Translations under genes and position numbers: made by a program
Notes under the pieces: generated by a model
Told to the model about the DNA's origin: nothing
What the model saw: the letters and a program-made list of their open reading frames with translations, nothing else
The model's database searches: none
Shown here: positions 24,801 through 48,200 of the stretch, in pieces
Layout of the letters: each line of letters opens with the position of its first letter
Position numbering within the stretch: position 1 is the stretch's first letter
Assembly (NCBI GenBank): GCA_004794655.1
Contig: SMMW01000188.1
Location: forward strand, 1-64,000
DNA: 64,000 nt
Direction: 5' to 3'
Source of the DNA: Marisa cornuarietis
Taxonomy: Eukaryota; Mollusca; Gastropoda; Architaenioglossa; Ampullariidae

Positions 24801-27800
24801 TGAATACCAAGGCGCACATTTAGACTGGCGCCTCAGACGTCGAGACACTGGGTCACGTGGTCATCAACTACTCTACGTAAAACACAGTCAAGTTGCTCAA
24901 CAGAGGGAGGTTGGAGGAGCGCCATCTGCAGCTGTGCTTTGAATGCTAGTCTATCCACATTTTGTAATGACCGAGTGGGTCTGAAAACTGGGGCCGATGA
25001 TGGGCATTTGCGATCCAGTTCGATTAGTACAGAGTAGTGGTCAGATGAGAGATCATGGGAAACATCAACTGACTGGACCAAGTGGTCATCAGGTCGATGT
25101 ATGACCCAGTCCAGGATGTGATCTCTTTTGTGAGTTGGTTGCGACACGGACTGGACAAAACGAAAGGTGTGCAACATTTTGGACAGTTTGACAGTGTCAG
25201 GGTGAGAACTGTTGTCGAAGTGCACATTAACATCTCCGAGGAGAATTGCGGGTCCAATTAGTGCATTGCTATAATCCAAGAGATCATGGAGTTCTGAGAA
25301 AAATGTAGAGGCTGTAAGTTTGTTCCTGGCGCTAGGAGGAGGTCTGTAGATGCAGAGCAGGTTGTCCATCCAGTAAGACTGCTTCATTCTCTGTTGTGAG
25401 CTGTAAATAGCGTACGGTGCTTCAAAGTGTACCACACATTTGAAGTAACTCTTTGTTACACTGGATGTAATGTAAATCCTGAAGACTTGTTGCAAGCATG
25501 ATTGACTTATTCCTGTGTACAGAACTTTTGAAATAATCTCTCTTTTACAGTGACATGGGCAGCATCAGCCATTTTTGCATACTGGTGGTTGATTCCATTT
25601 GCCTTATTGATGGTTTTATGGTGGCGTGGAAACCCAGCGCACTACACTTTTTTGGAGATCCTCTGTCTTTATGGATACTCCTTGGCCATCTACATCCCTA
25701 TATCAGTGAGTTTTTCTACGTCACTAGATCAGTTAAAATGGAGAGTAGGTTCATCTAATTTCTATCCATCTTTGTAAATGTTTGTAAATGTTCCAACCAC
25801 TCTGAGATAGGTTTGCAATTGACCATAAGCTTAGCATTTTGATGTCCTGATTGGCTAGTTTAAAGACCATATGACTAGTTTAGACGACCATGTGGTCGCC
25901 GCTTCGCCATTTTTCCATCAGCCAGCAATGGAAGCCGCTGACACAGACGTCACTTACGCTCGCTGAGTGACCATTACCATTTCCACACTACAGTCAAAGC
26001 CAATGAAAAATGGCTCCACTGCCTTGGGGGGATCTTGGGAAAGATAAAGGCTAAGGGAGTAAATCCCTACAGAAAGTCTTGATGCTAACATGGCATCAAC
26101 GGGCGAAAACTTTCCACGATGAGGGTACTGGCCAGGGCCCAGCGCCTACGTGTTTATGACCAGGCCGACTACCAGAGACAACTAAGTGGAAGTGTTATAC
26201 CAACAACTAGATAAGGTTGTGAAGGCAATTCCAAAAAATGGCATATTCATTGCACTCAGTAACTGGAACGGCAAGGTCAGCCCAGATACTTACCAGCAAT
26301 GGGCAGGAACGGTGGGGATGGCGAAACCAACGACAGGGGCATCAGACTCCTAGAGTTTGCACAGAGCCAGAGACTCACCTTAGCCAACACCTTACACCCT
26401 CACAGTAAAACAAGGACGACCGCGTGGCACTCACCAGCTGGATTGGTCCATAACCAGATCGACTATATCCTACTGCTGAGACACTTCAAATCCAACATCA
26501 ACAAGGCCAAGACAAGGACGTACCCAGGCGCTGACATAGGCAGCGACCACAGAGAGACCAGATAATGAGAGGGTCAACTCCTTCTTTGTGCCTACTTGCT
26601 TAAGAAAAGTATTGACGCAGTTGCGTCCCTTCGAAACTTGATGCTACGTGACAGTTGCTGCTCTCAACCACTACTGCTACACAAAGTCGTCGCTAGCAGC
26701 GTTTATCTTCAGAGTGAATGCCTAGGTGTTTGTGACATGAAATGACTTTCATCTAAGAACAGATTTTTATGTCTTGTATTCATGGGAACAGCTTAGATGA
26801 GAGGAGTTAGGGAGAGTTTGAATACATGTGTGACAGCTGACTATATTTAAAAAAGATAACTTTTATAAATTCAAACAGCAAATCCATGAGCACAAATTTT
26901 TAAAACCAATAAAATTCTAATTTATGAATATGAGAAGAGAAGTTAAAAACAGACTTACACATGAATATAAACATGACACAAACATGCTCACAATCAGAAG
27001 ACTTGTTCACATGTTGAGACATAGAGATTTCTGTTTACATATTTGACATACAAGCATGCAGCAATAAATTCTCACACAAATCATGATATTAGTAATAAAC
27101 AGATCTATGTTTATACATTCATATCCCTTATTGTAAGCACAGTGGTGGACAATTTAAAGAAAACAGCGAGGGTTACTACAAAATATACAGCAAGACTCAA
27201 AGGGACCATTTTTCTTCACATTTATGTACTTTAAAAAAGATTTACAACATTTTCTTTCACACTGTTCTAAAACAATTTTAAAGTGCTCTGAAAGCCTACA
27301 AATAATGTAACTTCAATATTTTTCTATTTCATTTTGTTCCTTTCTCAGAAAAGGACACATAGCTATCGTTCAGAGAAAAATTAAGGCTTCTATCATTTTA
27401 TCACTAAATCCTGGGTAGATCTTGATTTTTTTGCATTGTCATCTTTAATGTTGATACACAAGGGAGCAAAAAAAAATCTTTTTCAGCAAACGATAGGCCT
27501 TCGGGCTTGTATGAAGTAGAGAGCTGTTACTTTGTCATTCTCTGTCCACCTATATCCATTCTTGCTCTTATTAATTTCTCTCAGCTGTGATGCAAAAAAT
27601 TTCATCCTCTCAAGTGGAAGAATGGTAGACAGCTGTTTTAAAATGGCAGCTTTCTTTACTTCTTTTTGCCTCTTTCTGTTTCTGCAATGCTTTTTCATTT
27701 TCTTCTTTTTGAGCTCTACTATCAGGCTGCTCAGTTTTTCTTTGAGATTTGCACCTACATGTATTAGCATAATGAAAAGGAGTTAACAGTAGCCCAATTA

Positions 27801-30800
27801 TCCTATATATCTATATGTAGAATCTGTACAAACATGCACACCTTCAAACAAACCTTTTACTTTGTAAGCTATCATCATCGTCATCATCATCATCATCAGA
27901 CGTATGTGCCAGTTAGAGTGACCTAGCTTGACAAATGTTAATTTAAAAGAAAAGAAAATATGACAAAAACAAAGGCCTATGAAGATAAAATTTGGGTTAG
28001 TAGTATATCTAGTAATTGTAAGTTATCAACCTTGCAAAGTGGATTTGGGATGGAGAAAACTCTAGGTACAGCATTCCACACAAGACTTTTTTGGGGGGTT
28101 GGACAGTTGTACTGACTTTCCTCAAAATGTTTTGAACACAGACAGGAGCCTTTTCCATACATGTCAGATGGTTTAAGGTAGTCAAAATCTTCCCTTCATG
28201 TTAAATTCATCCATGTCTTGCACCTGTTGCAATAGTTGTTTCAATATATTAGTAACAAATATTTCAGTAATGCAAAATTAACCAGTTATAGCATTATGAG
28301 ACTGTACGTGTACAATAGTGTACCAACCGTGACCATCAACACCTCACCCAGTGACGAATGCCTTAAATGATAATCCTATAAAAAATTTATGTAGGTTCAT
28401 CATAGCATAAGTGACAATCCACCTCGCACTTTCACAGTATAAACAGTAGAGTAATATTAATATTCATATTGACGAGCAACCGCTTGTAGCAGACGACTCT
28501 CAACTACAGTACACATCGTATATTGAGAATAAATACATAGCATATTGTCCACTTTGCCTCACGCGGTCACCTTTGCTGGCTTGTGGCATGTTTCTTAACA
28601 TCCAGTTACGAAAGATAACTCTAATGGACGAGTTTTCCCTTCGGTCTAGAGTTGACCCTCTCATCTAGTCTCTCTGGCGACCATGACCTTGTTCTAATGA
28701 ATCTGAAGCTGAAAGCGAAACGACTCTCAAACACCCACTGAATTTGCTTTGATTTGGAGAAGCTGCAAGACCCAAACGTTGCAAAAGTTTTTAAGGCCAA
28801 AGTTGGAGGAAAATTTGCCGTGCTGAACCTGGTGGAATGCTGGAAACATCAAATACTTCGGGTGTATCAACGCAATTGAGCTTCAGCTATGAAGACGTGT
28901 ACATTTGCAAGTATGTGAACTGTCTGCTGTTTTATTCATCTTGCTGTGATCTTTGTAGTCGGTGTGGGTTAAATATAGCTGCTGTTTGATTCATCTTTTT
29001 GTGATCTTGTGATCTTTGTAGTCGGTGTGGGTTAAATATAGCTGCTGTTTGATTCATCTTTTTGTGATCTTGTGATCTTTGTAGTCGGTGTGGGTTAAAT
29101 ATAGCTGCTGTTTGATTCATCTTTTTGTGATCTTGTGATCTTTGTAGTCGGTGTGGGTTAAATATAGCTGCTGTTTGATTCATCTTTTTGTGATCTTGTG
29201 ATCTTTGTAGTCTGTGTGGGTTTGTTTGATTTCAGCTGCTGTGGGTTATCCAGATTACCTGGCTTCAGTGGATTCTCGTCATGTTAGGGGCAGCCTTGTC
29301 TGGTTCTGTTCTTCTTTTGGCTTTCTGGCCAGCTGTGAGAGAAGATGTCAAAAAGGTACAAATTATTATAAATGCATAACCCATGCAAAACCAAAGATTT
29401 CCTTTTTGTGCAATTATGCATAATTCCAAAACTAATCTCAGACTAGTTGCAAATATGAAAAACATAATTCTCAATCATTTAGAAAAAATGTTTTGTTTTT
29501 AACTATGAACCATTTGTGTGAAATGAAGCCTTTTCTTCAGGGAAATTTTGTTTTAGGGATTGAGGGATGACAGGTAGTTAATTTCTCATAAAGACAGGAA
29601 CTAATGAGACATAAAAGTAGGTTATTGACAAGTGTAAAAGCGTCACCTTAACCCTGACCCTGACAGAAGTACAAGTGTATCATAGGGCATGAAGTTTACA
29701 TTTTTGGTACATCAGTCATTTCTGAAAAAATATTCATATTACATAGGTAATAAACATTGTGTAGAATTTATTCACTTCATATGCATGTTGCAGGTGGCAC
29801 TGACCATTATGGCCATCATCTTCATCCTGCACTTTGCTCTAGCCTTAGGTTTCATGGTAAGTGTGCCATGCAATGCTTCCATGATGGAATTGTGTATGTG
29901 TTTGGGTTAGGCACAGGGCTTTGTTTATTAACATTGGTAATATCAGTCTTATCTTGAGGGGCAGCTTGATTTGTGCTTGTCTACGTTGACCTGTTGTGTT
30001 GTGCCTATTATTTGACACACGCTTCATCATGATGGTGCTGAACTGTTTGCAGCCCTTTGGTTTTCATCTACAGCTTTTCAACTGCTTGTCTCTGTCTACT
30101 GTCATCATGCTTTCTTTGTGCAATTTGTTGATGAGGTCATGCAATCAGCACAGAGTGGTCTTCCCTGTCTGCTATGTTATCACTCACATTTCTTCAGACC
30201 TCTGGTCCTAGCAATCTACAGATGATTTGATCTGTGGACAGCACAGACCTCTGGTCCTAGCAATCTATGGATGATTTGATCTGTGAAGAAGACTGTTCGG
30301 AGTAATAATTGTGACCCTCCACGACGAAATAAGTCGCACGGAGCATGTGCAGTTTTACTTTTCTTTAAAAATGGATTCCTTGATTATTAAACTAACAGGA
30401 AGGTACAGTGGTATGCTAAAATAAAAGTTAGAAATTGTCTTAAAATACTTTTAAATCAAGGTACCCCATGGTGATTCGTCCCGACTTCCACAGGAAAATT
30501 ACATAATAATAATAAATGAAGATTTGTATAGCACATATTGACACTCATAGAGAGCATGCTCTTAGCACTTACAACAAGGAAGAGACATGGACTACATGGA
30601 TAGAATACGAGGGACGGAAGAATAAACGACAGTACTGACAACAAACAGAAAACAAAGATGGAAAACACAAAAAAACAGCAAGTAACAGGAACAGAGAAAT
30701 ATAGTGATTCTGCAGAGAAAGATGAGGAGAAAAGTAACAAGAGCAGAAGGGGGGAGGGTAAGGACGAGCATTGTGTGGACTGTGTTAGGAGTAATGCTCA

Positions 30801-32946
30801 AGGAAGAGGTGTGTTTTCAGTGCAGATTTGAAGGATTTAGTTGTAGGAAGGTGGCGGATATGGAAAGGAAGAGAGTTCCATTGTTTTGCTGCACAGTAAC
30901 CAAAGATCCTGTGACTAATGTTTCAAATGCTGTTTCTGTATTAATTCTCTGACAGAACACCATCGTGTTATACCTTGCCAGAGAGCCAGACCTCTGTATT
31001 TTCAATCTCTTTAAAGAGTTATTCAAATATTAATTAATCAGACGATTTGTTTGCAAAAGTTTTGGGGTAAACAAAGCTGGTGGTTGATCACGACGCTATC
31101 CAGTGGGAGAATCAGATACTGATTTCTCTTTGGTAACGAAACGAAAAGCGCTGAGCGATTTGTTTGAAGGAGATGAAACTCATTCCTTCCACCAGGTTTT
31201 GTTCACACGTGCTGTGTAAAGTGAAAGCATGGCAAGAGCGTATCTGAGTGACGAACCATTATTAACTTTTAATCCATGAAGCCAGTAGAACATTTTGTGC
31301 TTTTTATTGAATAAAGGGAAAGTGTTTATTCAGTACTGTACGTGTGAATTAACAGAACAAACACATTAATTTGGCATAAAAGTTGTGCTTCTAGAAATTT
31401 GTATTTTTGTGTGAGCCGCCAGTTCTCCAAGTTTTCCAGTATGTCAAAGCATGCACTTCATGTTTTGTTTATTTTTGGCACACTAGTAGATAATGTTTGA
31501 GTACTCTGCTGTTTCTGTGAGTGTGCATGCTAATTAGACTGCAGTAACAGTTTTCTTCCATTGACGTTTACTTTACTGACAGGGTAAGGCACTAAAAGGC
31601 ACACAAATAGTCATTGCAATGTATTTTTCTGTTACTTGAAATGATGTAGCGTGCAGTATTTTATCATCAGGCAAAATGTAGTACAATTTAAACAATTAGA
31701 AGTACCGGTTGCTATAGGAAAAACCTAGTGGAATCGCTGAAAATCTTTTCTAAAAAAGGCCGCCACCGTACTCGCAAACTTCAAACCTTTATAACTCATT
31801 CAATTTTAGGGCTAGAAGAACAACTCTGGTATCAAAAGAAAGGTCAGAACCTGCACATTTTTAAAACATGCAAATTGCTATATCTCAAATTTCCGACTTA
31901 AGACTCATTTCATCGTGGAGGGTCACACTTGATCTGCTTTTATCACAGATTAATAATGATTTGTGGATCTGAACCAGCAGCTGTAAAACTTTAACATCTT
32001 AATTTGTGAAAAGATGCTAACCCACTGCGTTGGTCAGTTTGGAATATTGCAATCAGTAAAATTGTTTGGTACTCTTGCAACCAGAAAATATAATTTTTTT
32101 CTTCTGGAATATCATTTTCTTCACAAGATTATCGCAGTGATTTGTCAGTTCATAAAGCACCAGTCCAAACTGATCTACCTAAACAAAGAGATCTGCAATA
32201 CATAAAGGATGATAAGCTTGTGTTAGAAGTATTTTATCGGTGGATTTGTAGTGCTTCTCTTCCTATTCTTTGTGAACTCAGTATAGTTTTTTTAAAGTGG
32301 AATTCTGCAGATTACACTATCACCAGCAAAAAAAAAAAGTAATAATATACACTTACGTTGATCTGTTGTATGACTGAGACAGTGGTGTGGATTGGAGGAT
32401 CTGCAAACTTGATTAATCATCATTATTATTATTATTTGTAAAGTGTAATGAGCTAGACCATAGGGCTAGGATATGGTGCTGTACAAGTGTACTTTATTAT
32501 TACAGTATTTTATAAAGTATCATCTCAAGCAACAACTAGAGTTAGGAGAGTTAGTAATTTCTTGGTATGATGATTCATTGTACACGATCTGACAGTTGCC
32601 TAGTCACAGGCCGAGACCAGCTGACTGGTAATATCACTTGTTTTTTCAGCTTTGTTTCTTCTACGTGCCTTCTACTAACGACACGCAGCAGTCACATCTC
32701 GTGCCATCCAACACAACAGTGGCTACTGTTGTAGAAACCTCAGCACTGAAGGCAGCGCTGGTCAACCAGTCCCAAGCTCAAGCCCTACCAGACAGTGTGA
32801 CAGATAAGCCACAAAGTACACCGCACGACAAGCAGATGGGAATAGGTGAGGCCCTCAAAGCCAGAAGTTCAAAACACCAGTCAGATGGTGCCCAGTCATC
32901 TGACATGGGGACTTTCAACAATCAGAGACAATTGAATGGTAATTGA
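6819..32946 (+). CDS. YIPF1/2: YIPF1/YIPF2-like Yip1-family Golgi membrane protein (complete, 9 exons)
   Basis: Nine exons with consistent phases give 370 aa: 6819-6854, 10573-10606, 13388-13518, 15534-15699, 19800-19910, 25551-25705, 29236-29355, 29794-29856, 32650-32946. The order of blocks matches human YIPF1/2: acidic DSDDEESDKAE, FWTFEYYQQFFDVETNQV, RPNPDLYGPFWICTTLVF, FLEILCLYGYSLAIYIPIS and SGSVLLLAFWPAVREDVKK. Five hydrophobic spans lie near residues 124-145, 161-184, 193-211, 212-242 and 252-279, with an acidic cytosolic N-terminus, as expected for Yip1-family proteins that bind Rab GTPases and act in ER-Golgi traffic. The Met at 6819 (aacATGg) is chosen over an in-frame Met at 6804 with poor context. 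The hydrophilic, Gln/Ser-rich C-terminal tail (about residues 280-370) is longer than in human YIPF1 (306 aa). Whether it is YIPF1 or YIPF2 cannot be decided here. Confidence 0.93.
6855..8262 (+). other. YIPF intron 1, 5' part
   Basis: Intron sequence without recognisable coding potential. It holds a (TA)n run near 8031-8047 and an A-rich tract near 7988. The 3' part of the intron is occupied by the TTAA-flanked element. Confidence 0.6.
8401..9830 (-). mobile_element. 5'-truncated non-LTR retrotransposon (RT domain, CR1/L2-like group)
   Basis: A 310-aa open frame (9810-8878) carries RT blocks in order: NDFRPIALTSLVMKTFEKIV, FADFSSAFNTVQPHLL, STGSPQGCCLSPLLFIMYT, the catalytic box FSDDTALL (FADD variant), LELNVDKTKEIVIDFR and SFRYLGTIFDSQLKW. 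The frame runs off without endonuclease, so the copy is 5' truncated. The 3' end (plus-strand 8401-8420) is a short tandem tail of (TCATTG)n in element sense rather than poly(A), as in CR1/L2-type elements. It sits in YIPF intron 1, antisense to YIPF, nested in the TTAA-flanked element. Confidence 0.8.
9778..9863. repeat. Perfect 16-bp inverted repeat with 54-bp loop
   Basis: aagagcctcgatttcg at 9778-9793 is exactly inverted at 9848-9863. It spans the 5' truncation point of the RT copy at 8401-9830, suggesting a hairpin or a 5' inversion made during target-primed insertion. Confidence 0.75.
10573..10606 (+). CDS. YIPF1/2: YIPF exon 2
   Basis: 34-bp microexon encoding GSKLDDGLHFQ plus one base, between acceptor tctttttcag and donor gtattt. 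The last base joins with AT of exon 3 to make Asp. Confidence 0.75.
10607..13387 (+). other. YIPF intron 2
   Basis: 2.8 kb. It holds a probable decayed LINE 3' region (11515-12030), a (CA)n tract near 11351-11370 and another near 12811-12828. No conserved coding sequence was recognised. Confidence 0.6.
11515..12030 (-). mobile_element. Probable non-LTR retrotransposon 3' untranslated remnant
   Basis: It begins on the plus strand with (AATTC)n then tttatttaccagaggtaa, i.e. an element tail of the form ...AATAAAGAATTGAATTGAATT on the minus strand. The gcttttta-rich body and the 'ttccacagctcacttcctgagtattt' type wording resemble LINE 3' regions common in molluscs. No RT motif remains. Confidence 0.35.
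13388..13518 (+). CDS. YIPF1/2: YIPF exon 3
   Basis: 131 bp after acceptor cttttgtcgtactag. Encodes IPHNTWSGDGKESE...SDDEESDKAE, the acidic cytosolic segment; ends in phase 0 at donor gtaggt. Confidence 0.8.
13795..14000 (-). repeat. SINE-like interspersed repeat
   Basis: This is the reverse complement of the repeat at 62028-62190: shared blocks include the equivalents of ttggtgttttac, tcagcaactaaggctat, cacggcaagg and aaccttcactgtattggtgacagg. Shorter pieces lie at 22470-22500, 50240-50340 and 55090-55245. No coding frame is conserved between copies, which supports a SINE. Confidence 0.6.
14018..14240. repeat. Direct tandem duplication, about 120 bp
   Basis: Two adjacent copies share gcaggtg(g/c)caccagct, tacacaggagattggt and tagagttgagtgtaaa. 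The first copy carries an extra cagctcctgc segment. Confidence 0.6.
14317..14508 (+). mobile_element. Non-LTR RT fragment
   Basis: A 63-aa frame with YKYLSIIIDDKLTWKAHIDN and then IIRKCIAACTA, the thumb segment that follows the RT catalytic core in Jockey/CR1-like elements. Nothing recognisable flanks it. Confidence 0.6.
15534..15699 (+). CDS. YIPF1/2: YIPF exon 4
   Basis: 166 bp after gtgttaacag, with FWTFEYYQQFFDVET and HIRPNPDLY, strongly conserved in YIPF1/2. Ends in phase 1 at donor gtgagt. Confidence 0.93.
15875..19540. repeat. 36-bp minisatellite array, YIPF intron 4, split by a solo LTR
   Basis: The basic unit is 36 bp (cacctacagacttactggca is its core), with derivative units of other lengths. 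Copies from about 18172 to 18500 are nearly identical; those left of the LTR and right of 18540 are more varied, some carrying a ctgcagacaagacc variant. Because 36 is divisible by three, both strands show long open frames of 12-residue repeats (FTYRLTGTK type; GEQCGLGASKSV type). These are repeat artefacts, not genes. Confidence 0.9.
16604..18166. mobile_element. Solo LTR with 5-bp target duplication GGCAC
   Basis: A 1563-bp unique block interrupts the 36-bp array. It starts TGTCACGGATC and ends GTACGCTACA (TG...CA), and is flanked by GGCAC at 16599-16603 and 18167-18171. Five-base duplications and TG...CA termini are established marks of LTR retrotransposon integration. No gag, pol or env frame is present, so it is read as a solo LTR left by recombination. 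Confidence 0.75.
19800..19910 (+). CDS. YIPF1/2: YIPF exon 5
   Basis: 111 bp after gccttctttcag. Encodes PFWICTTLVFTTAIAGNLAN and the following loop; first membrane span. Ends in phase 1. Confidence 0.93.
20396..22063 (-). mobile_element. L2-type LINE copy A (decayed, 5' truncated)
   Basis: Minus-strand RT with FKIALVRPLLKKSKLDTSVL, CGVPQSSVLGPVLFILYT, catalytic SYADDRQLYC and the thumb YLGFIVTADMTLDKQV. The 3' end starts on the plus strand at an (AAT)n stretch followed by tttgtatagcacata. Frames are broken near 20950, 21240 and 21945, and part of the fingers region is missing compared with copy B. Same family as copies at 22561, 30503 and 43285. Confidence 0.85.
22064..22556 (+). mobile_element. 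RTE-type LINE 3' fragment
   Basis: The plus strand reads KMASLVRHQEPLLLTVKQH, FFGHVTRHDTLSKTVLQGTL and WTGRPVQDLLTI, the C-terminus of RTE-clade polyproteins, also seen at 46330-47290. It ends in short tandem repeats (accaacca, then ctgactga). It lies between two L2 copies on the opposite strand. Confidence 0.75.
22561..25490 (-). mobile_element. L2-type LINE copy B (endonuclease + RT, nearly intact)
   Basis: A 660-aa frame (24848-22866) carries the RT: VLNNYRPVSNLSFLSKIIEK, LLDLSAAFDTIDH, FCGVPQGSVLGPVLFILYT, catalytic SYADDTQLYC and NLGFIVTDDMTLDKHV. Upstream, 25495-24833 encodes the C-terminal half of an APE endonuclease (ILLGDVNVHF, SSDHYSVLIEL). The two frames differ by one indel near 24840, and a stop replaces the last residues kept in copy C. 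The 5' part of the endonuclease is absent. The 3' tail is (AAT)n on the plus strand. The insertion ends only about 60 bp before the YIPF exon 6 acceptor, antisense to YIPF. Confidence 0.9.
25551..25705 (+). CDS. YIPF1/2: YIPF exon 6
   Basis: 155 bp after ctctcttttacag. Encodes TWAASAIFAYWWLIPFALLM and FLEILCLYGYSLAIYIPIS, spans 2 and 3. Ends in phase 0 at gtgagt. Confidence 0.93.
26100..26549 (+). mobile_element. RTE-type LINE fragment, 5' part (continues at 28677)
   Basis: Encodes the end of an RTE endonuclease: RLLEFAQSQRLTLANTLHPH, then VHNQIDYILL and GADIGSD. The coding continues in frame at 28677 when the intervening DNA transposon and one target copy are removed. Frame breaks upstream show decay. 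Confidence 0.75.
26550..28676 (-). mobile_element. THAP-coding DNA transposon (P-element/THAP9-like), internally reduced
   Basis: Terminal inverted repeats of about 28-31 bp (26550-26580 and 28649-28676, beginning cagagagac and ending ggtcaactc inward) bound 2127 bp, flanked by gcgacca at 26543-26549 and 28677-28683. On the minus strand, 28162-27977 encodes the end of a THAP zinc finger: CSKHFEESQY (C-x2-H ligands) and AVPRVFSIP (the AVPTIF signature). Then 27770-27483 encodes a Lys-rich coiled coil and NGYRWTENDKVTALYF, as in THAP9/P transposases. The catalytic region is absent. P elements make 8-bp duplications; 7 bp match exactly here. The element interrupts an RTE LINE in YIPF intron 6. 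Confidence 0.75.
27977..28162 (-). pseudogene. THAP zinc-finger segment of the DNA transposon
   Basis: Partial THAP (C2CH) DNA-binding domain with the second C-x2-H pair and the AVPxxF box. The first cysteine pair is not in this frame. Read as part of the mobile element, not as a host gene. Confidence 0.65.
28677..28905 (+). mobile_element. RTE-type LINE fragment, continuation
   Basis: Encodes HDLVLMNLKLKAKRL, then one stop and FDLEKLQDPNVAKVFKAKVG, the endonuclease-RT linker of RTE elements. It is in frame with the fragment ending at 26549. Confidence 0.7.
28922..29235. repeat. 63-bp minisatellite abutting YIPF exon 7 acceptor
   Basis: About 4.5 copies of a 63-bp unit (core tgtgggttaaatatagctgc). 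The last, diverged unit merges with the functional acceptor tttgatttcag before exon 7. Each full unit contains tatagCTGCTG, like the true junction tttcagCTGCTG. The reverse strand shows an artefactual 21-residue repeat frame. Confidence 0.85.
29236..29355 (+). CDS. YIPF1/2: YIPF exon 7
   Basis: 120 bp, phase 0 at both ends: LLWVIQITWLQWILVMLGAA and SGSVLLLAFWPAVREDVKK, span 4 plus the conserved cytosolic loop. Confidence 0.93.
29794..29856 (+). CDS. YIPF1/2: YIPF exon 8
   Basis: 63 bp, phase 0, after ttgcatgttgcag (atgcatgttgcag). Encodes VALTIMAIIFILHFALALGF and a Met, span 5; donor gtaagt. Confidence 0.9.
29857..32649 (+). other. YIPF intron 8
   Basis: 2.8 kb with an L2 3' fragment (30503-30915) and otherwise no recognised coding sequence. 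30180-30290 holds an imperfect duplication around agacctctggtcctagcaat. An (ATT)n run lies near 32421-32437. Confidence 0.6.
30503..30915 (-). mobile_element. L2-type LINE copy, 3' end only
   Basis: Closely matches the 3' portions of the copies at 22561 and 43285: (AAT)n, then agatttgtatagcacatatt, then the segment with gtaggaaggtggcggatatgg. Truncated at its 5' side near 30915. Confidence 0.85.
32650..32946 (+). CDS. YIPF1/2: YIPF exon 9 (last coding exon)
   Basis: 297 bp after cacttgttttttcag. Encodes the end of span 5 (LCFFYVPS) and a hydrophilic Gln/Ser/Lys-rich tail to TGA at 32944-32946. A strong internal donor-like site (gtgagg at 32848) could allow alternative C-termini. The tail is poorly conserved in the family, so the stop rests on the open frame. 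Confidence 0.8.
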   Translation, partial: LCFFYVPSTNDTQQSHLVPSNTTVATVVETSALKAALVNQSQAQALPDSVTDKPQSTPHDKQMGIGEALKARSSKHQSDGAQSSDMGTFNNQRQLNGN

Positions 32947-36792: not shown

Positions 36793-36880
36793 TCATTTGT
36801 GTTTCCACACAGTGAAAGAAGCGCTGGCCTGACCAGCAGCAGTGGAGTAAAAGAAGCTTTGGGCATCAGCACAATGGAAC
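36793..36880 (-). CDS. OvoA: OvoA last exon
   Basis: 88 bp after tttctgttgacag. The first base completes Lys; then 28 codons ending SASFTVWKHK and TGA. OvoA proteins typically finish with a segment ending TVW plus one or a few basic residues, which fits. The middle part lacks the usual PFxIREHxRK wording, so this exon is less certain than the others. Confidence 0.7.
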
Positions 36881-39206
36881 CTGTCAACAGAAACAAATTT
36901 CAATCATGGAAATTTTCAAAAAAATCCACTTTCTGGAACTTTCCAAAATAAACAGAAAAAGTGGTCAACTCAGATGTTTTGAGAAGACAGCTGAAACCTG
37001 TTAACAGGAATCACAATTCTGTTTTCTTGGGAAGAAGGTAAATGAAGGCACAGAAATAAATAAAGGGGTGTATGTGCCTGTTTGTGTGTGTGTGTGTGTG
37101 GGGGGGGGGAGGGTCCAAAGTGACGAGAGAGAGAGAGAGAGAAGTCTATAAAATGGGGTTATACCAGTTCAGGGTGCATCAAGAGAAAGATGTGTTAAAA
37201 CCACATTAACCCACCTACATCCAAGATGATGTAAGATAAGATGAATGAAGCCACATTCACTTGTGTGAAAGATATGAAAAGATTATAAAGCTGCAGCCCA
37301 TGTCAAAGATATAAGGTGTAAAGCTACGTTAACTCACTTGTGTCCAAGATGCTCCCAAAGGTTTTCTTTGGTCCAGGTCCCATCACTGCTGATTATGATC
37401 ACAATACCACTTGGGGAAGTTATTTCCCATAGACGTGCAAGCCAGGCTGTAGAAAGAGCGTATGATAAGTAAATTCTGGTAGTTAATAAGTAACAAGAAG
37501 TAAACAGAAAGATGTATACTAGTAGTCCTACAAATTGCAGGCGGTCAACCATATTCATCATCACTTATATCAACTAATGTTGATTCACTTAATGAAGCGG
37601 GGTAAAATCAACTGAGAACTTTGTGCAGCTGGCTGGTGTCAATAATAAGTAAACTGCTCACAACATGCAGCTAAGTGTTGAATGCACAGAATATGGCATC
37701 GGGATAGTGTCGGTGACACAGACCGACAAGTATGGTCACTTTATGTATCCAGTCCAAAGTCAACCCCTTTGAAAACACCTACACTTCCTGTCTTTTAGGA
37801 CCTAACAAGTACCACACGCCATATGTTTTCTTGGAATAATAAATTTCAGCATGCAGAGACTAATAATGCTTGTGGCTGCAAAAATAACATGCTATGGGAA
37901 CTAGTTTGCTCAACTTACAAAATAATTTGTTTTATTTCATGGTATTTTATGCTATCCTGTAGCACCCATGGACACTTTTGTTGACATATTAAAGAATCCC
38001 ACATGAAGAGAGATTGGTCTTCTCCAAGCCTACATTTCAAAGGCATAAAAAGTCTTTCAACAGCTATGCCTAAACAATATTCACACAAATACTTAAACGT
38101 AATATGCTATTGGCATGAAAACTTTAAAAAAAAAAAAAGTTTTGGACTTGTTTGCTTGAGGCTATACAGTGTCGGGGCTTAGATTTTCGCTCAACAGTAG
38201 TGGACATCAGAGTCAAGGAGGAAATGCTGACAGTTTGAAATACTAGGGGTCATTTGTTTAATATGAAATAGTTTCCACCTTCATTTATTATTTTGATTGA
38301 AACTTTAATGACACTGCCATGCAATAACTGTATTATATCGCAATACAATGTTAATGACAGTTATTTTATTAGTAACAACAACAATCTAATCAGTGTTTTT
38401 ACTACAACTACCTAATCTATTCCTCTATCAGGACACAAGTACAGATGATTTTCTATTTAATTTAATATTAGATCTGAGAGATCTTAAAGGCAGACAATAC
38501 GTGGTCTTCCAGTCACAACATAAAGTCATGTACGGTGATGATGAATGTGTTGATGTCCACAGTGGTGTTTCGCTCTTCTCATATTGACATTTTAGTTCTT
38601 TTTTAATGATATCCGTTAAAGCTTTTTGTATTTTTGACTTCAATCAAGAAAATTTAAATGTGTTGTCAACAAGAAAACCTAGAAGAAATAACTATGATGT
38701 TCCAAGAGTGGCTCAGTGTATGTGTGCATGTGTAAATTGCCGAAGTGCAAAATGGTAAGTTTGGCACAAGTGAATGACCTTATAACATCAATGTTTATTG
38801 CACAACAATCTACAACCCAGATATATTGTTACCACATTTCATACAGAGCTAAATTTGTGAGCGAACCAGTCTATAGGCTAAATTCATCTTTACTGAAATG
38901 TAGCAGATGCTCATCAGCATCAGAAACTCCATCTGGATACGAGATTAAGCCAAGTCAACCAGGTGGCCAACCAAAAGGCTCAGATAAGGTCTCTACAATT
39001 TTCCTTAGTGTTAATGACAAGATAAGAAGGTAGTGTGTGTGTGTGTAGGTCAGTGGATGGGATAAGAGAGAGGGAGAAAGAGCACTAAATTTTTCTTGCA
39101 CCTCCCCCCCGCCTCATCAACTTCTATTTTTGTATTTCTTATGCTTAGCGTGGTTATGTAAAGTGCAGTGAGCGTAGCCACATGCTATGACTCTGTGCTA
39201 TACAAG

Positions 39207-39242
<36 letters not shown>

Positions 39243-42200
39243 ATCCATTAGAAAGTGGGATGGAAGTAAACAAAACAGTCAACAATTTCCTACCTTTTGG
39301 ATTCTGTATGCGGTGCAGAAAGGAGACAAGAACCATGTTGTGCTGTTTGATTTCATTGGGCAGCCACGTCAGCTGACACATACATATACAGATATTGTCA
39401 TTAAATGCTCAGTACATAGGTAGCCACGTCAGCTGACACATACATACACAGACATTATGTCGTTAAATGCTATATACACAAGTAGCCATGTCAGCTGACA
39501 CATACATACACAGACATTATGTCGTTAAATGCTATATACACAGGTAGCCATGTCAGCTGACACATACATACATACACAGACATTATGTCGTTAAACGCTC
39601 TATACACAGGTAGCCATGTCAGCTGACACATACATACATACACAGACATTATGTCGTTAAACGCTCTATACACAGGTAGCCATGTCAGCTGACACATACA
39701 TACATACACAGACATTATGTCGTTAAACGCTCTATACACAGGTAGCCATGTCAGCTGACACATACATACATACACAGACATTATGTCGTTAAATGCTATA
39801 TACACAGGTAGCCACGTCAGCTGACACATACACAGACATTATGTCGTTAAACGCTCTATACACAGGTAGCCATGTCAGCTGACACATACATACACAGACA
39901 TTATGTCGTTAAATGCTATATACACAGGTAGCCATGTCAGCTGACACATACATACACACACAGACATTATGTCGTTAAATGCTATATACACAGGTAGCCA
40001 TGTCAGCTGACACATACATACATACACAGACATTATGTCATTAAATGCTCTGTACATAGCCACGTCAGCTGACACATACATATACAGATATTGTCATTAA
40101 ATGCTCAGTACATAGGTAGCCACGTCAGCTGACACATACATACATACACAGACATTATGTCGTTAAACGCTCTATACACAGGTAGCCATGTCAGCTGACA
40201 CATACATACATACACAGACATTATGTCGTTAAATGCTATATACACAGGTAGCCATGTCAGCTGACACATACATACATACACACACAGACATTATGTCGTT
40301 AAATGCTATATACACAGGTAGCCATGTCAGCTGACACATACATACATACACACACAGACATTATGTCGTTAAATGCTATATACACAGGTAGCCATGTCAG
40401 CTGACACATACATACACAGACATTATGTCGTTAAATGCTATATACACAGGTAGCCATGTCAGCTGACACATACATACATACCCAGACATTATGTCGTTAA
40501 ATGCTATATACACAGGTAGCCATGTCAGCTGACACATACATACATACACAGACATTATGTCGTTAAATGCTATATACACAGGTAGCCATGTCAGCTGACA
40601 CATACATACACAGACATTATGTCGTTAAACGCTATATACACAGGTAGCCATGTCAGCTGACACATACATACACAGACATTATGTCGTTAAATGCTATATA
40701 CACAGGTAGCCACGTCAGCTGATACATACACAGACATTATGTCGTTAAATGCTATATACACAGGTAGCCACGTCAGCTGACACATACATACACAGACATT
40801 ATGTCGTTAAATGCTATATACACGGGTAGCCATGTCAGCTGACACATACATACATACACAGACATTATGTCGTTAAATGCTATATACACAGGTAGCCATG
40901 TCAGCTGACACATACATACACAGACATTATGTCATTAAATGCTCTGTACATAGCCACGTCAGCTGACACATACATATACAGATATTGTCATTAAATGCTC
41001 AGTACATAGGTAGCCACGTCAGCTGACACATACATACATACACAGACATTATGTCGTTAAACGCTCTATACACAGGTAGCCATGTCAGCTGACACATACA
41101 TACATACACAGACATTATGTCGTTAAATGCTATATACACAGGTAGCCATGTCAGCTGACACATACATACATACACACACAGACATTATGTCGTTAAATGC
41201 TATATACACAGGTAGCCATGTCAGCTGACACATACAGCTGACATACATACATACCCAGACATTATGTCGTTAAATGCTATATACACAGGTAGCCATGTCA
41301 GCTGACACATACATACATACACAGACATTATGTCGTTAAATGCTATATACACAGGTAGCCATGTCAGCTGACACATACATACACAGACATTATGTCGTTA
41401 AACGCTATATACACAGGTAGCCATGTCAGCTGACACATACATACACAGACATTATGTCGTTAAATGCTATATACACAGGTAGCCACGTCAGCTGATACAT
41501 ACACAGACATTATGTCGTTAAATGCTATATACACAGGTAGCCACGTCAGCTGACACATACATACACAGACATTATGTCGTTAAATGCTATATACACGGGT
41601 AGCCATGTCAGCTGACACATACATACATACACAGACATTATGTCGTTAAATGCTATATACACAGGTAGCCATGTCAGCTGACACATACATACACAGACAT
41701 TATGTCGTTAAATGCTATATACACAGGTAGCCATGTCAGCTGACACATACATACACAGACATTATGTCATTAAATGCTATGTACACAGGTAGCCATGTCA
41801 GCTGACACATACATACACAGACATTATGTCGTTAAATGCTATATACACAGGTAGCCATGTCAGCTGACACATACATACACAGACATTATGTCGTTAAATG
41901 CTATATACACAGGTAGCCATGTCAGCTGACACATACATACATACACAGACATTATGTCGTTAAACGCTATATACACAGGTAGCCATGTCAGCTGACACAT
42001 ACATACACAGACATTATGTCGTTAAACGCTATATACACAGGTAGCCATGTCAGCTGACACATACATACATACACAGACATTATGTCGTTAAACGCTATAT
42101 ACACAGGTAGCCATGTCAGCTGACACATACATACACACAGACATTATGTCGTTAAATGCTATATACACAAGTAGCCATGTCAGCTGACACATACATACAC

Positions 42201-45200
42201 ACAGACATTATGTCGTTAAATGCTATATACACAGGTAGCCATGTCAGCTGACACATACATACACACAGACATTATGTCGTTAAATGCTATATACACAGGT
42301 AGCCATGTCAGCTGACACATACATACACAGACATTATGTCGTTAAATGCTATATACACAGGTAGCCATGTCAGCTGACACATACATACACAGACATTATG
42401 TCGTTAAATGCTATATACACAGGTAGCCATCAGCTGATACATACACAGACATTATGTCGTTAAATGCTATATACACAGGTAGCCATGTCAGCTGACACAT
42501 ACATACACAGACATTATGTCGTTAAATGCTATATACACAGGTAGCCATGTCAGCTGACACATACATACATACACAGACATTATGTCGTTAAATGCTATAT
42601 ACACAGGTAGCCATGTCAGCTGACACATACATACACAGACATTATGTCGTTAAATGCTATATACACAGGTAGCCATGTCAGCTGACACATACATACACAG
42701 ACATTATGTCGTTAAATGCTATATACACAGGTAGCCATGTCAGCTGACACATACATACACAGACATTATGTACGTTAAATGCTATATACACAGGTAGCCA
42801 TGTCAGCTGACACATACATACATACACAGACATTATGTCGTTAAACGCTATATACACAGGTAGCCATGTCAGCTGACACATACATACACACAGACATTAT
42901 GTCGTTAAACGCTATATACACAGGTAGCCATGTCAGCTGACACATACATACATACACAGACATTATGTCGTTAAATGCTATATACACAGGTAGCCATGTC
43001 AGCTGACACATACATACACACAGACATTATGTCGTTAAATGCTATATACACAGGTAGCCATGTCAGCTGACACATACACAGACATTATGTCGTTAAACGC
43101 TATATACACAGGTAGCCATGTCAGCTGACACATACATACACAGACATTATGTCGTTAAATGCTATATACACAGGTAGCCATGTCAGCTGACACATACATA
43201 CACACACAGACATTATGTCGTTAAATGCTATATACACAGGTAGCCATGTCAGCTGACACATACATACATACACACACAGACATTGTCGTTAAATAATAAT
43301 AATAGTGAAGATGTGTATAGCGCATATTGACACTCATAGAGAGCATGCTCTTAGCGCTTAAAACAGGGAAGAGACGTGGACTAAGTAGACACAGAACAAA
43401 GGGGACGAAAGAAAACGACAGTACTGACGACGAAACAGAAAACAAAAGGCATCAAGTAACAGGAACAGAAAAATATAGTGAGTCTGCGAGAAAGATGGGT
43501 AAAGTAGCAAGAGGGAAGGGGGCGGGGTTAAGAAGGACTAGCATTGTGTGGACTGTGTTAGGAGTAATGCTCAAGGAAGAGGTGCGTTTTCAGTGCAGAT
43601 TTGAAAGATTCAGTTGTAGGAAGGTGGCGGATATGGAAAGGAAGAGAGTTCCATTGTTTTGCAGCACAGTAGCCAAAAGTCCTGTGACCATATGTTGTTG
43701 TTCTGGTGACAGGAACAGTTAGGATATGGTCGTCAGACGAAGAGCGTAGTTGTCTGGACGGAGAGTAAGGGATGAGAAGTTCAGAGAAATAGTCAGGACA
43801 GGGGCCAGCAAAGAAATTAAAACACAGCACAGACAGTTTGTACTGAATGCCAGAACGGATGGGTAGCCAGTGTAGAAAACGAAGGAGAGGAGTGACATGG
43901 TCCCGTTTCCTTGCTCTAAGCACCAGACGTGCAGTGGAGTTCTGTACTCTCTGGAGTCTCTGAATGAGGTAGTCAGGGCAGCCTGCCAGCAAGGAGTTGC
44001 AGTAGTCAAGTCGAGAAAGAACAAACGCACAGACAAGAGTGTTGGTAGCGCGTGTAGAGAGAAAATGACGGATGGCACTGATCTTACGGAGCTCATAATA
44101 GGCAGACCGACAGACAGCTGCTACATGTCTATCGAGTGTCATGTCATCAGTGACAATAAATCCCAGATTCCTAACAGATGACGTGAAGGTGATGTTGCTG
44201 TCGCCCACCTTGATGTGATTGGGCAGACTGACGAGTGAAGGTTGATGTCTTCTTCTATGGCACAAGAGGGCTTCCGTTTTATCATCATTTAGTTTAAGCT
44301 TGTTTTTTAGCATCCAGCCCTTGACATCACTGATACAAGCTTCTAGAGAGCTAATAGCAGAGTAAGACTCAGCCGGCGGAGTGGAACAGAAAAGCTGCGT
44401 GTCATCAGCATAGGATTGATGAGAAACCTGGTGAGACCGGATATATATGCTATATACACAGGTAGCCATGTCAGCTGACACATACATACACAGACATTAT
44501 GTCGTTAAATGCTATATACACAGGTAGCCATGTCAGCTGACACATACATACACAGACATTATGTCGTTAAATGCTATATACACAGGTAGCCATGTCAGCT
44601 GACACATACAGACATTGTGTTTTTGAATGCTCTATACATAGGTAGCCATGTCTTCTGACATATACATACACAGACATTATGTCGTTAAATGCTCTGTACA
44701 CAGGTAGCCATGTCAGCTGACACATACATACACAGACATTATGTCGTTAAATGCTCTGTACACAGGTAGCCATGTCAGCTGACACATACAGACATTGTGT
44801 TTTTGAATGCTCTATACATAGGTAGCCATGTCAGCAGTACATAAGAAAATCTATCATAGAGTGCTCTGTACATCGGTGCAAAAGAAAAGCTCCGATGAAA
44901 CATGACTGATGTGATTTAGATACACCTGCAATCAGGGATGTTGGTTACTACCATGTGTTCTGTAGAACAGTTCAGGATGAAGACTGAAGAACGTTGCCAT
45001 GTTTACCTGTATAATTTTCAGTGTGTATTACCTCTAACCTTACTAAAGAGAAGCGTTGTGGCAAAGAGTGAGGTTATTACCTGTTTAAAGAGGACTTTTT
45101 GAGGGTTTACTGTTGGATCAAGAGTTACTTTCTTCCCATCTTTGTAGGTCAATGTTTTGCCTTTCTGTAGTTCTAGTGCTGCACTGATGAGCCGTGCACA

Positions 45201-48200
45201 ACACTCCACACCTAGAACCTGCACACAAGCATATTCAACATTACAGAATAATCCTTGTGACCATGATGAAATCTACTTTTGCAAAATAGCTACAAATAGT
45301 TGTGCTGTGGAGTAAAACAGAAATCTATGATCTGCAGGATACGAGCTTAAAATGCCAGTCCTTCCAGCTGTAGCCAATTGTCTCTCTTCTCATCAGTGTC
45401 ACTGTATTATTTCTTGGCACATCACAGAGTCATTTCTTGACAAGTCACTGTGTCATTTCTTAACACATTTTGACATTTTATTTTATTCATTTCCCCCATG
45501 AGAAGTATAGAGAAATTTTGACTATACACAACAGCTCACCCATACAAAGCTTGAATACACACACAACGATAAAAGAAAAATAAAAGTAAATACAAAACTG
45601 TGTTACACGAGAAAGGAGAGCGTAACAACGATACTAATAGTACATTTAGTACAGTGTTGCTCTAATCTTGGTACACTGCAAAATCGTTCAGTCTGGACTA
45701 GAGTTTTATTGAATGTTGTAAACTTAAAGTATGTTACATGGTCCTTGTAAGGTAATAAAGTAATAATAATAATGTGAACTTATAACATGCAACATCATGA
45801 CCAAGATAGATCGCACTCTCTGCGCAGACCAATAATGATAAATGAAAGATAAGAGACAGTGGAGGGTGAGATGTGTATAGACACACTGAAAAAGATAAGA
45901 GACAGTGGAGGGTGAGATGTGTATAGACACACTGAACAACATACAGATGAGGTACAAGAGTAGAAAATAAAGCAACTGATGAAGGTATGAAGGGATGTAG
46001 GTACTGTACACAGTGTGAGAATGGAGTCATTACATGATGGTTAGCATGACAGACAGTATTGACAGGAAGTTAAGAACAGTAATTCAGGGATAGTTCTTAG
46101 TGAACAGATATTTCAGAGAACATTTGAATGTAGACTTGGAGTCCGAGTGGTGAATGTGATGTGGAAGAAAGTTCCACTGCTTAGCAGCACAGAGGGAGTA
46201 TGTCCGTTGTCCGTATGTGACTGTCTTTGTGAGAGGGAGGGAGGGAGGGAAAGAATGCAGGAGTCTGATGAGGAGCGAAGGTTTAGGGCAAGGAAGTGGA
46301 CAGACAAGATTTTAGTAAAGTAGTAGGGGGTTGGTCAGTTGGTCGTCCCTTGCCTGGCACCTGTGGTTGGGGGGATCACATGGATAGACACGGCAGCTGA
46401 CAGGGGCCGCCACTCTTGTCTACTGTGGGTGATAGTCAGCAGGTCCTGTACAGGACGGCCAGTCCAGTCTTTGATGTTCGTAAGCCAGTTCTTCCTCTGG
46501 CCACCGCGGCGTCGGCCACCCTCCAAGGTGTCTTGAAGGACAGTCTTCTACAAGGTGTCGTGCCGGGTCACGTGACCAAAGAAGACCAGCTTACGTCACT
46601 TGACTGTAGATAGTAGAGGTTCCTGGTGTCCTACCAGTGTGGCCATCTTGTTTCTTACAAAGTCGTTGGTTTTGTGTTCTTTGTATGAGATCCGGAGCAG
46701 CCTCCTCAGACACTTGTTCTCGAATGCCTGGATTCTCCTTTTCGTGTCGGCGAGCAGAGTCCACGTGTCACATCCGTAGAGCAGGATTGGCACTACCAGG
46801 GATTTGTACAGCCTGTACTTGGTAGTGAACCTTATCTTGTGGCTATACCAGATCCTATCTAGCCTAGCCATTGCTACTGTTACTATTGTGATCCTGATGC
46901 CGATATCTGGCATGGTGCTGCCATCATTGGAGAGGGTGGCTCCCAAGTATTTGAAGCTGCTGACCTTTTCAAGCTGTATCCCGTTCATAAAGATCTCTGC
47001 TTTGCCATTGCCATTGATCATAACTTTGCTCTTTTCAGTGCTGGTCTCCATTCCTGCTAACAGGTCTGTGTCATCTGCGAAGCGTAGGTTGCAGATTGGT
47101 CTTCCACCGATTGAAATGGAGGTATGATGGTCATGAAGAGCTTCAAGCATGATGTTCTCCAAGAATATATTGAACAGCACGGGTGATAGGGGACACGACG
47201 TAGTCCTACTGTGGTGTGAAAGTAAGCTCCTATTTGGTTGTTCAGCAGTACTGTACTCGTTGAGCTTTTATACAGTGCTTCAACGACTTGAACGAGGCTT
47301 GAACGAGTAGTAGGGGGAGAAGCATTCAAAGAATCCATAGCATAGACTATTAGGAAGCCGAGTCCAATAAACTTGATTCCTTTGACCACTGAGTGGTTTA
47401 AATGTGCATGAGTCAGGGTATGCAGCAAGATGTGTGGGTAGGAGGCACACTAACATCAAACATACAATTGACATTAGCGAATACTCTGATGTGAAGACAC
47501 TGATTCATTTTGAACAGAAAAATCAGATACTGATTCATGTTACACAGAAAGATCAGAGATTGATTCATGTTACACAGAAAGATCAGAGACTGAGTAATGC
47601 TACACAGAAAGATCAGAGACTGGCTCATGTTTTGCTGAAAGATCAGATATTGCTTCATGATACACAGAAAGATCAGAGGTAAGGACATCCTAGAATCTCT
47701 CTCTCTCTTCCTAAGTGAATAAAGATTTTGTTGACAAGAAAACAAACAGGTCCCTAGGAATCACAATCTAAATACAGTAAGCTATAACTAGATACTCACT
47801 TCTTCAAAATGTTTGCTCAATTCAAAAGCAGCACAACCCACAGCACTTCCTATATGCAATGCAGTTGTCATGGGAATGTTGTAAGAGCGTGTCAGGCTGG
47901 CAGCAAGAGTAGCACAGGTAGAAGGCAAACTGTCTCGGTATCCAAACTCTAGTTCCAGAATTCCTTGCAGTGGCATGGTGGAGTCATACAGGTAGTTGAC
48001 GTTGACGGTTGGGACACTGTGCACCTCAGCATTCTCTATCACCATCTGTGATTTCTCTGGATAATGTAGACATAACGAGAACACATCAGTGGCTGTGTGT
48101 GTGTAAGTGTGTGTGTGTGTGTTTTCCTTTATTAATTTTATTAGACACTATAATTTGTTCTGGATTTATTTAATTGCTCAGGACACCTTTCTGGTCACAA

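What the first reader, a model, noticed from the sequence alone, without database searches (positions are those of the whole stretch)
39359..44840. A 5.4-kb minisatellite made of copies of the OvoA exon 13 splice acceptor
On the OvoA strand every unit ends its intron-like part in tatgtatgtgtcag and continues CTGACATGGCTACC, while the real junction is tatgtatgtgtcag|CTGACGTGGCTGCC. The array therefore begins inside the exon (exon base 14) and repeats the 3' splice site with the first 14 exon bases roughly 65-70 times. The spliceosome meets dozens of near-perfect decoy acceptors upstream of the true one. This could slow or vary splicing of the methyltransferase domain, or could be buffered because only the last copy is followed by a real exon.
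Basis: partly seen in the sequence, partly recalled or inferred. Interest (0 to 1): 0.88.

Follow-up and report, generated by a model that had tools for sequence, protein, structure and literature searches.

The report
Sixty-eight tandem copies of a splice acceptor
In what is likely an apple snail's only copy of the ovothiol-synthesis gene OvoA, the end of one intron is a tandem array holding 68 copies of the junction between that intron and its exon, and splicing is predicted to pass over 67 look-alike acceptors and use only the last, real one, which makes it a natural stress test of how cells choose splice sites.

Summary
On the OvoA strand, 68 tandem copies (56-77 bp) of the 3' end of one intron plus the first 14 bases of the next exon lie upstream of the true junction at 39372; 67 still carry AG. 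A 1.15-kb LINE fragment splits the array. The consensus unit matched only this locus in the 534-Mb assembly. One OvoA locus was found there, with an open 758-codon frame over 18 coding exons; of its 34 splice junctions only this one is copied. Local signals do not tell the true site from the decoys; exon-like sequence and a good donor follow only the true one. Every decoy read on into the exon gives an early stop, 67 of 67. So the true site is likely still used, by exon definition. The kind is known: "mirages" over intron-exon boundaries in amphioxus (PMC3087553), and boundary minisatellites in human genes, which can alter splicing (PMC2812944). New here: a mollusc, 68 copies, and a second snail, Nucella lapillus, whose predicted OvoA protein has extra copies of the same exon start. 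No RNA data could be consulted; effects on splicing are untested.

The parts
45081..45218 (-).
   Evidence: tblastn with P0001; exon table
44835..45080 (-). the only part of the intron before the array (246 nt); its 3' end GATGTACAGAGCACTC...TTATGTACTG looks like a decayed first intron tail
   Evidence: sequence
44447..44834 (-). distal part of the array: 7 exon-start copies; the seventh unit is cut by the LINE
43295..44446 (-). 5'-truncated LINE fragment inserted in the array, same strand as OvoA; holds a donor-like AAG|GTGGGC at 44208
   Evidence: 96% identical over 1,152 positions to window 22564-23715; RVT_1 E=3.8e-6, 27.2 bits, just under Pfam's cut-off of 29.6; donor score
39373..43294 (-). 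proximal part of the array: 61 exon-start copies with their intron-like tails, up to the true junction
39294..39372 (-).
39373..39374 (-). true acceptor AG; the junction is the centre of the 10-nt palindrome GTCAG|CTGAC
37338..37446 (-). OvoA coding exon 17
36794..36880 (-). OvoA coding exon 18, ends the 758-codon frame
40016..41801 (-). block of about 14 units present twice in tandem (94.8% identical over 908 alignment positions): likely a multi-unit duplication inside the array

Best explanation
The intron before coding exon 16 of OvoA ends in a tandem array holding 68 copies of its own 3' end plus the first 14 exon bases, which likely arose in place by repeated duplication of the real junction, and splicing is predicted to skip the 67 AG-bearing copies because only the last acceptor is followed by an exon body and a good donor. 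Shown: the copies, their absence elsewhere in the assembly by the search used, the intact frame of the one OvoA locus found, and the lack of exon-like sequence and of comparable donors behind the copies. Inferred: origin from the exon side, since the copied bases encode L-T-W-L-P, which is conserved in OvoA proteins; expansion by slippage or unequal exchange; use of the true acceptor by exon definition (U1 at the downstream donor helping to fix the nearest upstream acceptor). Any decoy that is used would give a transcript with an early stop, predicted to be removed by nonsense-mediated decay, so the array is probably a tolerated load rather than an evolved device. This is a mirage-type minisatellite.
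For: 68 units, 67 with AG. All 68 places matched by the consensus unit in the 534-Mb assembly lie in window 39382-44835. Of 34 OvoA junctions only this acceptor is copied, although tandem arrays fill about 26 of 53 kb of the gene's introns; of the 16 array stretches listed (two of them parts of this array) 1 overlaps an exon edge. The exon start FKQ-[LFMW]-T-W is kept in 49 of 54 OvoA proteins shown, mostly molluscs, so the exon is the likely donor of the copied bases. Open 758-codon frame, 92% identity to the Pomacea canaliculata protein, and exons after the array as conserved as those before it (blocks 86-95% against 70-98%) imply that the true acceptor is still used. Exon-likeness of the 79 nt after the acceptor: true 0.10, best decoy -0.11, 0 of 66 decoys reach the true value; the other 12 exons tested range from -0.09 to 0.43. 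Donor score: exon 16's own 4.3; best of 584 GTs in the array 1.9. 67 of 67 decoys give a stop before exon 16. [quoted passage not shown]
Against: No transcript was seen. In human duplicated genes, minisatellites at exon-intron boundaries do produce alternative splicing (PMC2812944, passages read). The acceptor matrix built from 13 sites of this gene is weak: 41% of other intronic AGs score at least as high as the true site. The exon-likeness gap between the best decoy (-0.11) and the lowest real exon (-0.09) is narrow. The first AG-bearing decoy is 302 nt from the donor, the true site 5,708 nt, so intron definition or first-come kinetics would favour decoys. 231 of 584 GTs in the array score at least as high as the gene's weakest donor, and 86 outscore three of the 13 real donors tested, so pseudo-exons are not excluded. 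The origin from exon to array is inferred from one species' DNA; no relative's DNA for this intron was available.
Confidence: 0.71

Rival explanations
1. Splicing brake: a share of transcripts is spliced to decoys, carries an early stop and is degraded, so array length sets OvoA output.
For: Local decoy signals equal to the true site (28 of 66 score at least as high); first decoy 302 nt from the donor, and all 67 decoys give early stops. Minisatellites at exon-intron boundaries change splicing in human duplicated genes (PMC2812944, passages). Human CBS has a 31-bp VNTR over a boundary, linked to reduced activity by the title of Lievers 2001 (seen in the references of PMC2630376; paper not held).
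Against: Decoys lack exon-like sequence and comparable donors; amphioxus mirages were reported not to disturb splicing (PMC3087553, passages).
Confidence: 0.16
2. Self-masking: the palindrome TGTCAG|CTGACA lets any two copies pair and bury their AGs in RNA, leaving the true AG free.
For: The palindrome is centred exactly on the junction (arm 5 nt at the true site; 0-3 nt at the other 33 junctions). Breaking it in silico raises the predicted accessibility of decoys from 0.013 to 0.053.
Against: The true site is predicted to be just as buried (0.010), so masking does not single it out.
Confidence: 0.04
3. Assembly artefact: copies inflated or misplaced by the assembler.
For: A block of about 14 units occurs twice at 95% identity; no reads were seen.
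Against: 30 distinct unit sequences in mixed order, a LINE inside the array, intact exons on both sides on a 206-kb contig, and other large arrays in the same gene.
Confidence: 0.05
4. A pre-existing satellite or mobile repeat reached the exon and overwrote its first 14 bases.
For: The gene is full of unrelated tandem arrays.
Against: The unit matched nowhere else in the genome (caveat: only two candidate stretches were scored); the exon start encodes residues conserved in distant OvoA proteins.
Confidence: 0.04

Closest known systems
Amphioxus 'mirage' minisatellites (BflGb6, BflGb9, Adh3; PMC3087553, abstract and passages read; Canestro 2002 not held)
   Same: Minisatellite-like tandem duplications spanning an intron-exon boundary; [quoted passage not shown] many, not all, copies keep splice signals; length instability.
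   Different: BflGb6 haplotypes have 6 and 3 units of 150-160 bp; here 68 units of 56-77 bp, in a mollusc, with a LINE inside. Normal splicing was supported by RT-PCR there, not tested here. The copy number of Adh3 mirages (10-72-bp units) was not seen.
Human internal tandem repeats at exon-intron boundaries (PMC2812944, passages read)
   Same: Minisatellites located at exon-intron boundaries; 27 intron modifications after manual inspection.
   Different: On average 30-bp units repeated 4 times, found in recently duplicated genes; they generate alternative splicing and novel introns. Here one gene, 68 units, effect unknown.
Lancelet PGBD5 tandem repeats over splice sites (PMC3902484, one passage read)
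   Different: Few copies (a triplication is named), lancelet, another gene.
Human CBS 31-bp VNTR c.1444_1467+7 (PMC2630376, passages read)
   Same: A VNTR over an exon-intron boundary, by its coordinates; 16-21 repeats.
   Different: Donor side, fixed 31-bp unit, human; that each unit carries a donor is from recall.
Predicted OvoA protein of Nucella lapillus (P0125)
   Same: Extra tandem copies of the same exon start (LMWLPIE-LTWLPME-LTWLPME).
   Different: 7-residue (21-nt) in-frame units read into the predicted protein; DNA and transcript not seen, may be a gene-model product.

Membership tests
Mirage minisatellite (intron-exon boundary repeat) | Minisatellite-like tandem repeats that span an intron-exon boundary | tested here: met
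   68 units with intron tail plus 14 exon bases, contiguous with the true junction
Mirage minisatellite (intron-exon boundary repeat) | Many, not all, units keep splice signals | tested here: met
   67 of 68 copies with AG; yUnAy site in 65 of 66 scored decoys
Mirage minisatellite (intron-exon boundary repeat) | Regular mRNA splicing not disturbed | not testable with these tools
   no RNA data; intact and conserved frame is indirect support
Mirage minisatellite (intron-exon boundary repeat) | Length instability between alleles or cells | not testable with these tools
   one locus found in the assembly; the internal 14-unit block duplication is a hint
Human-type boundary repeat (PMC2812944) | Boundary repeat that yields alternative transcripts | not testable with these tools
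   no RNA data
OvoA (5-histidylcysteine sulfoxide synthase) | ovoA_Nterm model above its curated cut-off | tested here: met
   TIGR04344 653 bits, cut-off 400
OvoA C-terminal methyltransferase | 4-mercaptohistidine N1-methyltransferase model (TIGR04345) above its cut-off | tested here: not met
   70 bits, cut-off 170, E=1.9e-19; a divergent methyltransferase-like domain
Dispersed satellite or mobile repeat | Copies at other genomic places | tested here: not met
   none outside the array (only the best candidates are scored there)

The most novel reading that the evidence does not exclude
The start of this OvoA exon is a recurrent duplication hotspot in caenogastropods, seeded by the palindrome GTCAG|CTGAC at the junction, and the number of decoy acceptors acts as a length-tuned brake on OvoA output through spliced transcripts that end early.
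Probability: 0.1. Interest if true: 0.85.

Novelty: new member of a known kind. Interest (0 to 1): 0.56.

Why it matters
It offers a natural experiment in 3' splice-site choice: dozens of near-identical acceptors in one intron, only the last followed by an exon, in the one OvoA locus found and with an intact frame. Long reads would show directly how far proximity to the donor, local signals and exon definition each count. It also brings a mirage, named from lancelets in the passages I read, to a mollusc, and points to a site where such duplications may recur.

Tried and rejected
Acceptor strength as discriminator: a matrix from 13 acceptors of this gene is too weak to separate sites (41% of 1,179 background AGs reach the true score) and puts 28 of 66 decoys at or above the true site. 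RNA masking: predicted AG accessibility is alike for decoys (mean 0.013) and true site (0.010); 46 of 66 decoys are lower, 20 are not. Known RNA families: none in the window at gathering threshold. Array-coded peptide: no relative at E<=0.001 among 2,433 candidates. Second OvoA locus: none among 17 scored candidates. Per-column conservation inside units: the last columns were scattered by the aligner because of length variation, so that part was not used. A survey of how common such arrays are in this genome (family PF00005) was planned and never answered (see below).

Literature: searches. Other papers holding the word mirage in those listings that I opened use it otherwise (a transposon class; a cited title). 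An abalone gene has a 27-bp minisatellite inside an intron, with no word of a copied splice site in the passages seen (PMC6905558). I did not find a mollusc case of a boundary repeat, which is a statement about these searches only. Troponin C mirages were seen only as a mention in PMC3902484. The passages of PMC2812944 were read late; because they show altered splicing at human boundary repeats, I moved the best explanation from 0.74 to 0.71 and the brake from 0.13 to 0.16.
Full report
What is there. On the minus strand of the window lies OvoA, the gene for 5-histidylcysteine sulfoxide synthase (ovoA_Nterm 653 bits against a cut-off of 400). tblastn with the Pomacea canaliculata protein places 14 exons in the window; with proteins of other snails and 140 kb more of the contig four further N-terminal exons appear, three of them outside the window. 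The 18 coding exons join into an open frame of 758 codons over about 55 kb, and the 650-residue part used as query is 92% identical to the Pomacea protein. The window's genome is held without a name: 534 Mb in 572 contigs. An apple snail or a near relative is likely; I did not identify it further.

The array. All but its first 246 nt, 96%, is array or LINE. Cutting at each copy of the exon start gives 68 units before the true junction at 39372. A typical unit reads CTGACATGGCTACC, then an intron-like part with TTTAACGAC, and ends TGTATGTATGTGTCAG. 67 of 68 copies have AG: 66 exactly before the copy and one shifted by a small deletion. A LINE fragment splits the array at about 43295-44446; it is 96% identical to another copy 20 kb away and carries part of a reverse transcriptase (just under the Pfam cut-off). 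A block of about 14 units is present twice.

Not chance and not found elsewhere. The 24-mer across this junction has 66 copies with up to five mismatches in the gene region; the other 33 splice junctions have none, and five mononucleotide shuffles give none. The consensus unit matched 68 places in the genome, all in this array (that search scores only the best candidates, here two). Tandem arrays fill about 26 of 53 kb of OvoA introns; of 16 stretches listed, two of them parts of this array, 1 overlaps an exon edge. So the array looks like one of many minisatellites of this gene that happened to include a splice junction.

Origin. The copied exon bases encode L-T-W-L-P. Of 185 OvoA alignments spanning the junction, bacterial ones included, 98 have hydrophobic-T-W/F-x-P there, and 49 of 54 proteins shown, mostly molluscs, read FKQ-[LFMW]-T-W (three gave no motif, one reads FSW, one is the Nucella case below). 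The exon was therefore most likely the source. The units differ from the exon at base 12 (A for G; 0 of 68 have G) and mostly at base 6 (A in 56 of 68, G as in the exon in 10); both changes are silent. The left flank reads GCACC|GATGTACAGAGC and the exon GCTGCC|CAATG; units read GGCTACCTATGTAC, as if the two were joined at a shared CC (my reading, not tested). The junction is a 10-nt palindrome, GTCAG|CTGAC; the other 33 junctions of the gene have arms of 0-3 nt. This may have helped the first duplication.

A second snail. In a search of 5.8 billion proteins, the predicted protein of Nucella lapillus (P0125) reads FKQ-LMWLPIE-LTWLPME-LTWLPME-VSHHD: two extra in-frame copies of the same exon start. 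It is 1 of 229 fetched proteins with more than one copy by the pattern [any][T/M]WLP. Seven of 229 proteins show any tandem duplication by my criterion; the other six lie in Asn/Gly-rich linkers. Eight of 185 alignments have an insertion of 4 or more residues near the junction; I see no copies of the motif in the other seven,'s pattern.

How it likely works. Locally the decoys are as good as the true site, and predicted RNA folding does not single out the true AG. What differs is downstream: the 79 nt after the true acceptor look like the gene's exons, those after the decoys do not (0 of 66 reach the true value; best decoy -0.11, lowest of 12 other exons -0.09), and the exon's own donor scores 4.3 against at most 1.9 for 584 GTs in the array, with donor frequencies from recall. 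Exon definition is thus the likely reason why the true acceptor can be found. Against this, 231 array GTs score at least as high as the gene's weakest donor, 86 of them above three of 13 real donors, and the first decoy is only 302 nt from the donor. A decoy read on into the exon always gives a stop first (67 of 67); mixed unit lengths make this expected, so it is no sign of selection. One place deserves a look: the LINE supplies a donor scoring 4.5 at 44208, 266 nt after the seventh decoy (44474), a possible pseudo-exon.

What is known. Minisatellite-like repeats over intron-exon boundaries were named mirages in amphioxus Adh3 and found again in its globin genes, where RT-PCR suggested regular splicing (PMC3087553, abstract and passages read). 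Similar repeats were noted in lancelet PGBD5 (PMC3902484, one passage). In human duplicated genes, minisatellites at exon-intron boundaries generate alternative splicing and novel introns; 27 such intron modifications, units of 30 bp repeated 4 times on average over all variable repeats (PMC2812944, passages). Human CBS has a 31-bp VNTR over an exon-intron boundary (PMC2630376, passages). By the features that could be tested this array is a mirage; its copy number is far above the 6 and 3 units of BflGb6, but I could not see the Adh3 numbers.

Verdict. A real and striking array of a known kind, in a mollusc, with a lead towards recurrence; functional effect open.

Noticed in passing
contig C91 64727-91756 (loci L017-L019): OvoA's first introns hold further large tandem arrays, one of 7.6 kb (70029-77597, 59-bp period, 98 copies); arrays make up about half of the gene's intron length.
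   Followed up: partly
contig C91 168907-203973 (L027-L030): A 35-kb array of a 10-bp unit, about 3,400 copies, near the end of the contig.
   Followed up: no
window 22564-24860 -, 20396-21591 and 30499-30922: Further copies of the LINE found inside the array, 96%, 73% and 84% identical; the first has a long reverse-transcriptase frame (RVT_1 E=1.4e-33).
   Followed up: partly
OvoA C-terminal domain, exons at 48056-36794: The methyltransferase half matches TIGR04345 at 70 bits, below its cut-off of 170, and the snail OvoA proteins at the top's list carry no precomputed methyltransferase domain: a divergent domain.
   Followed up: partly
window 44208-44474 -: LINE-borne donor AAG|GTGGGC lies 266 nt after a decoy acceptor and could create a pseudo-exon with an early stop.
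   Followed up: partly
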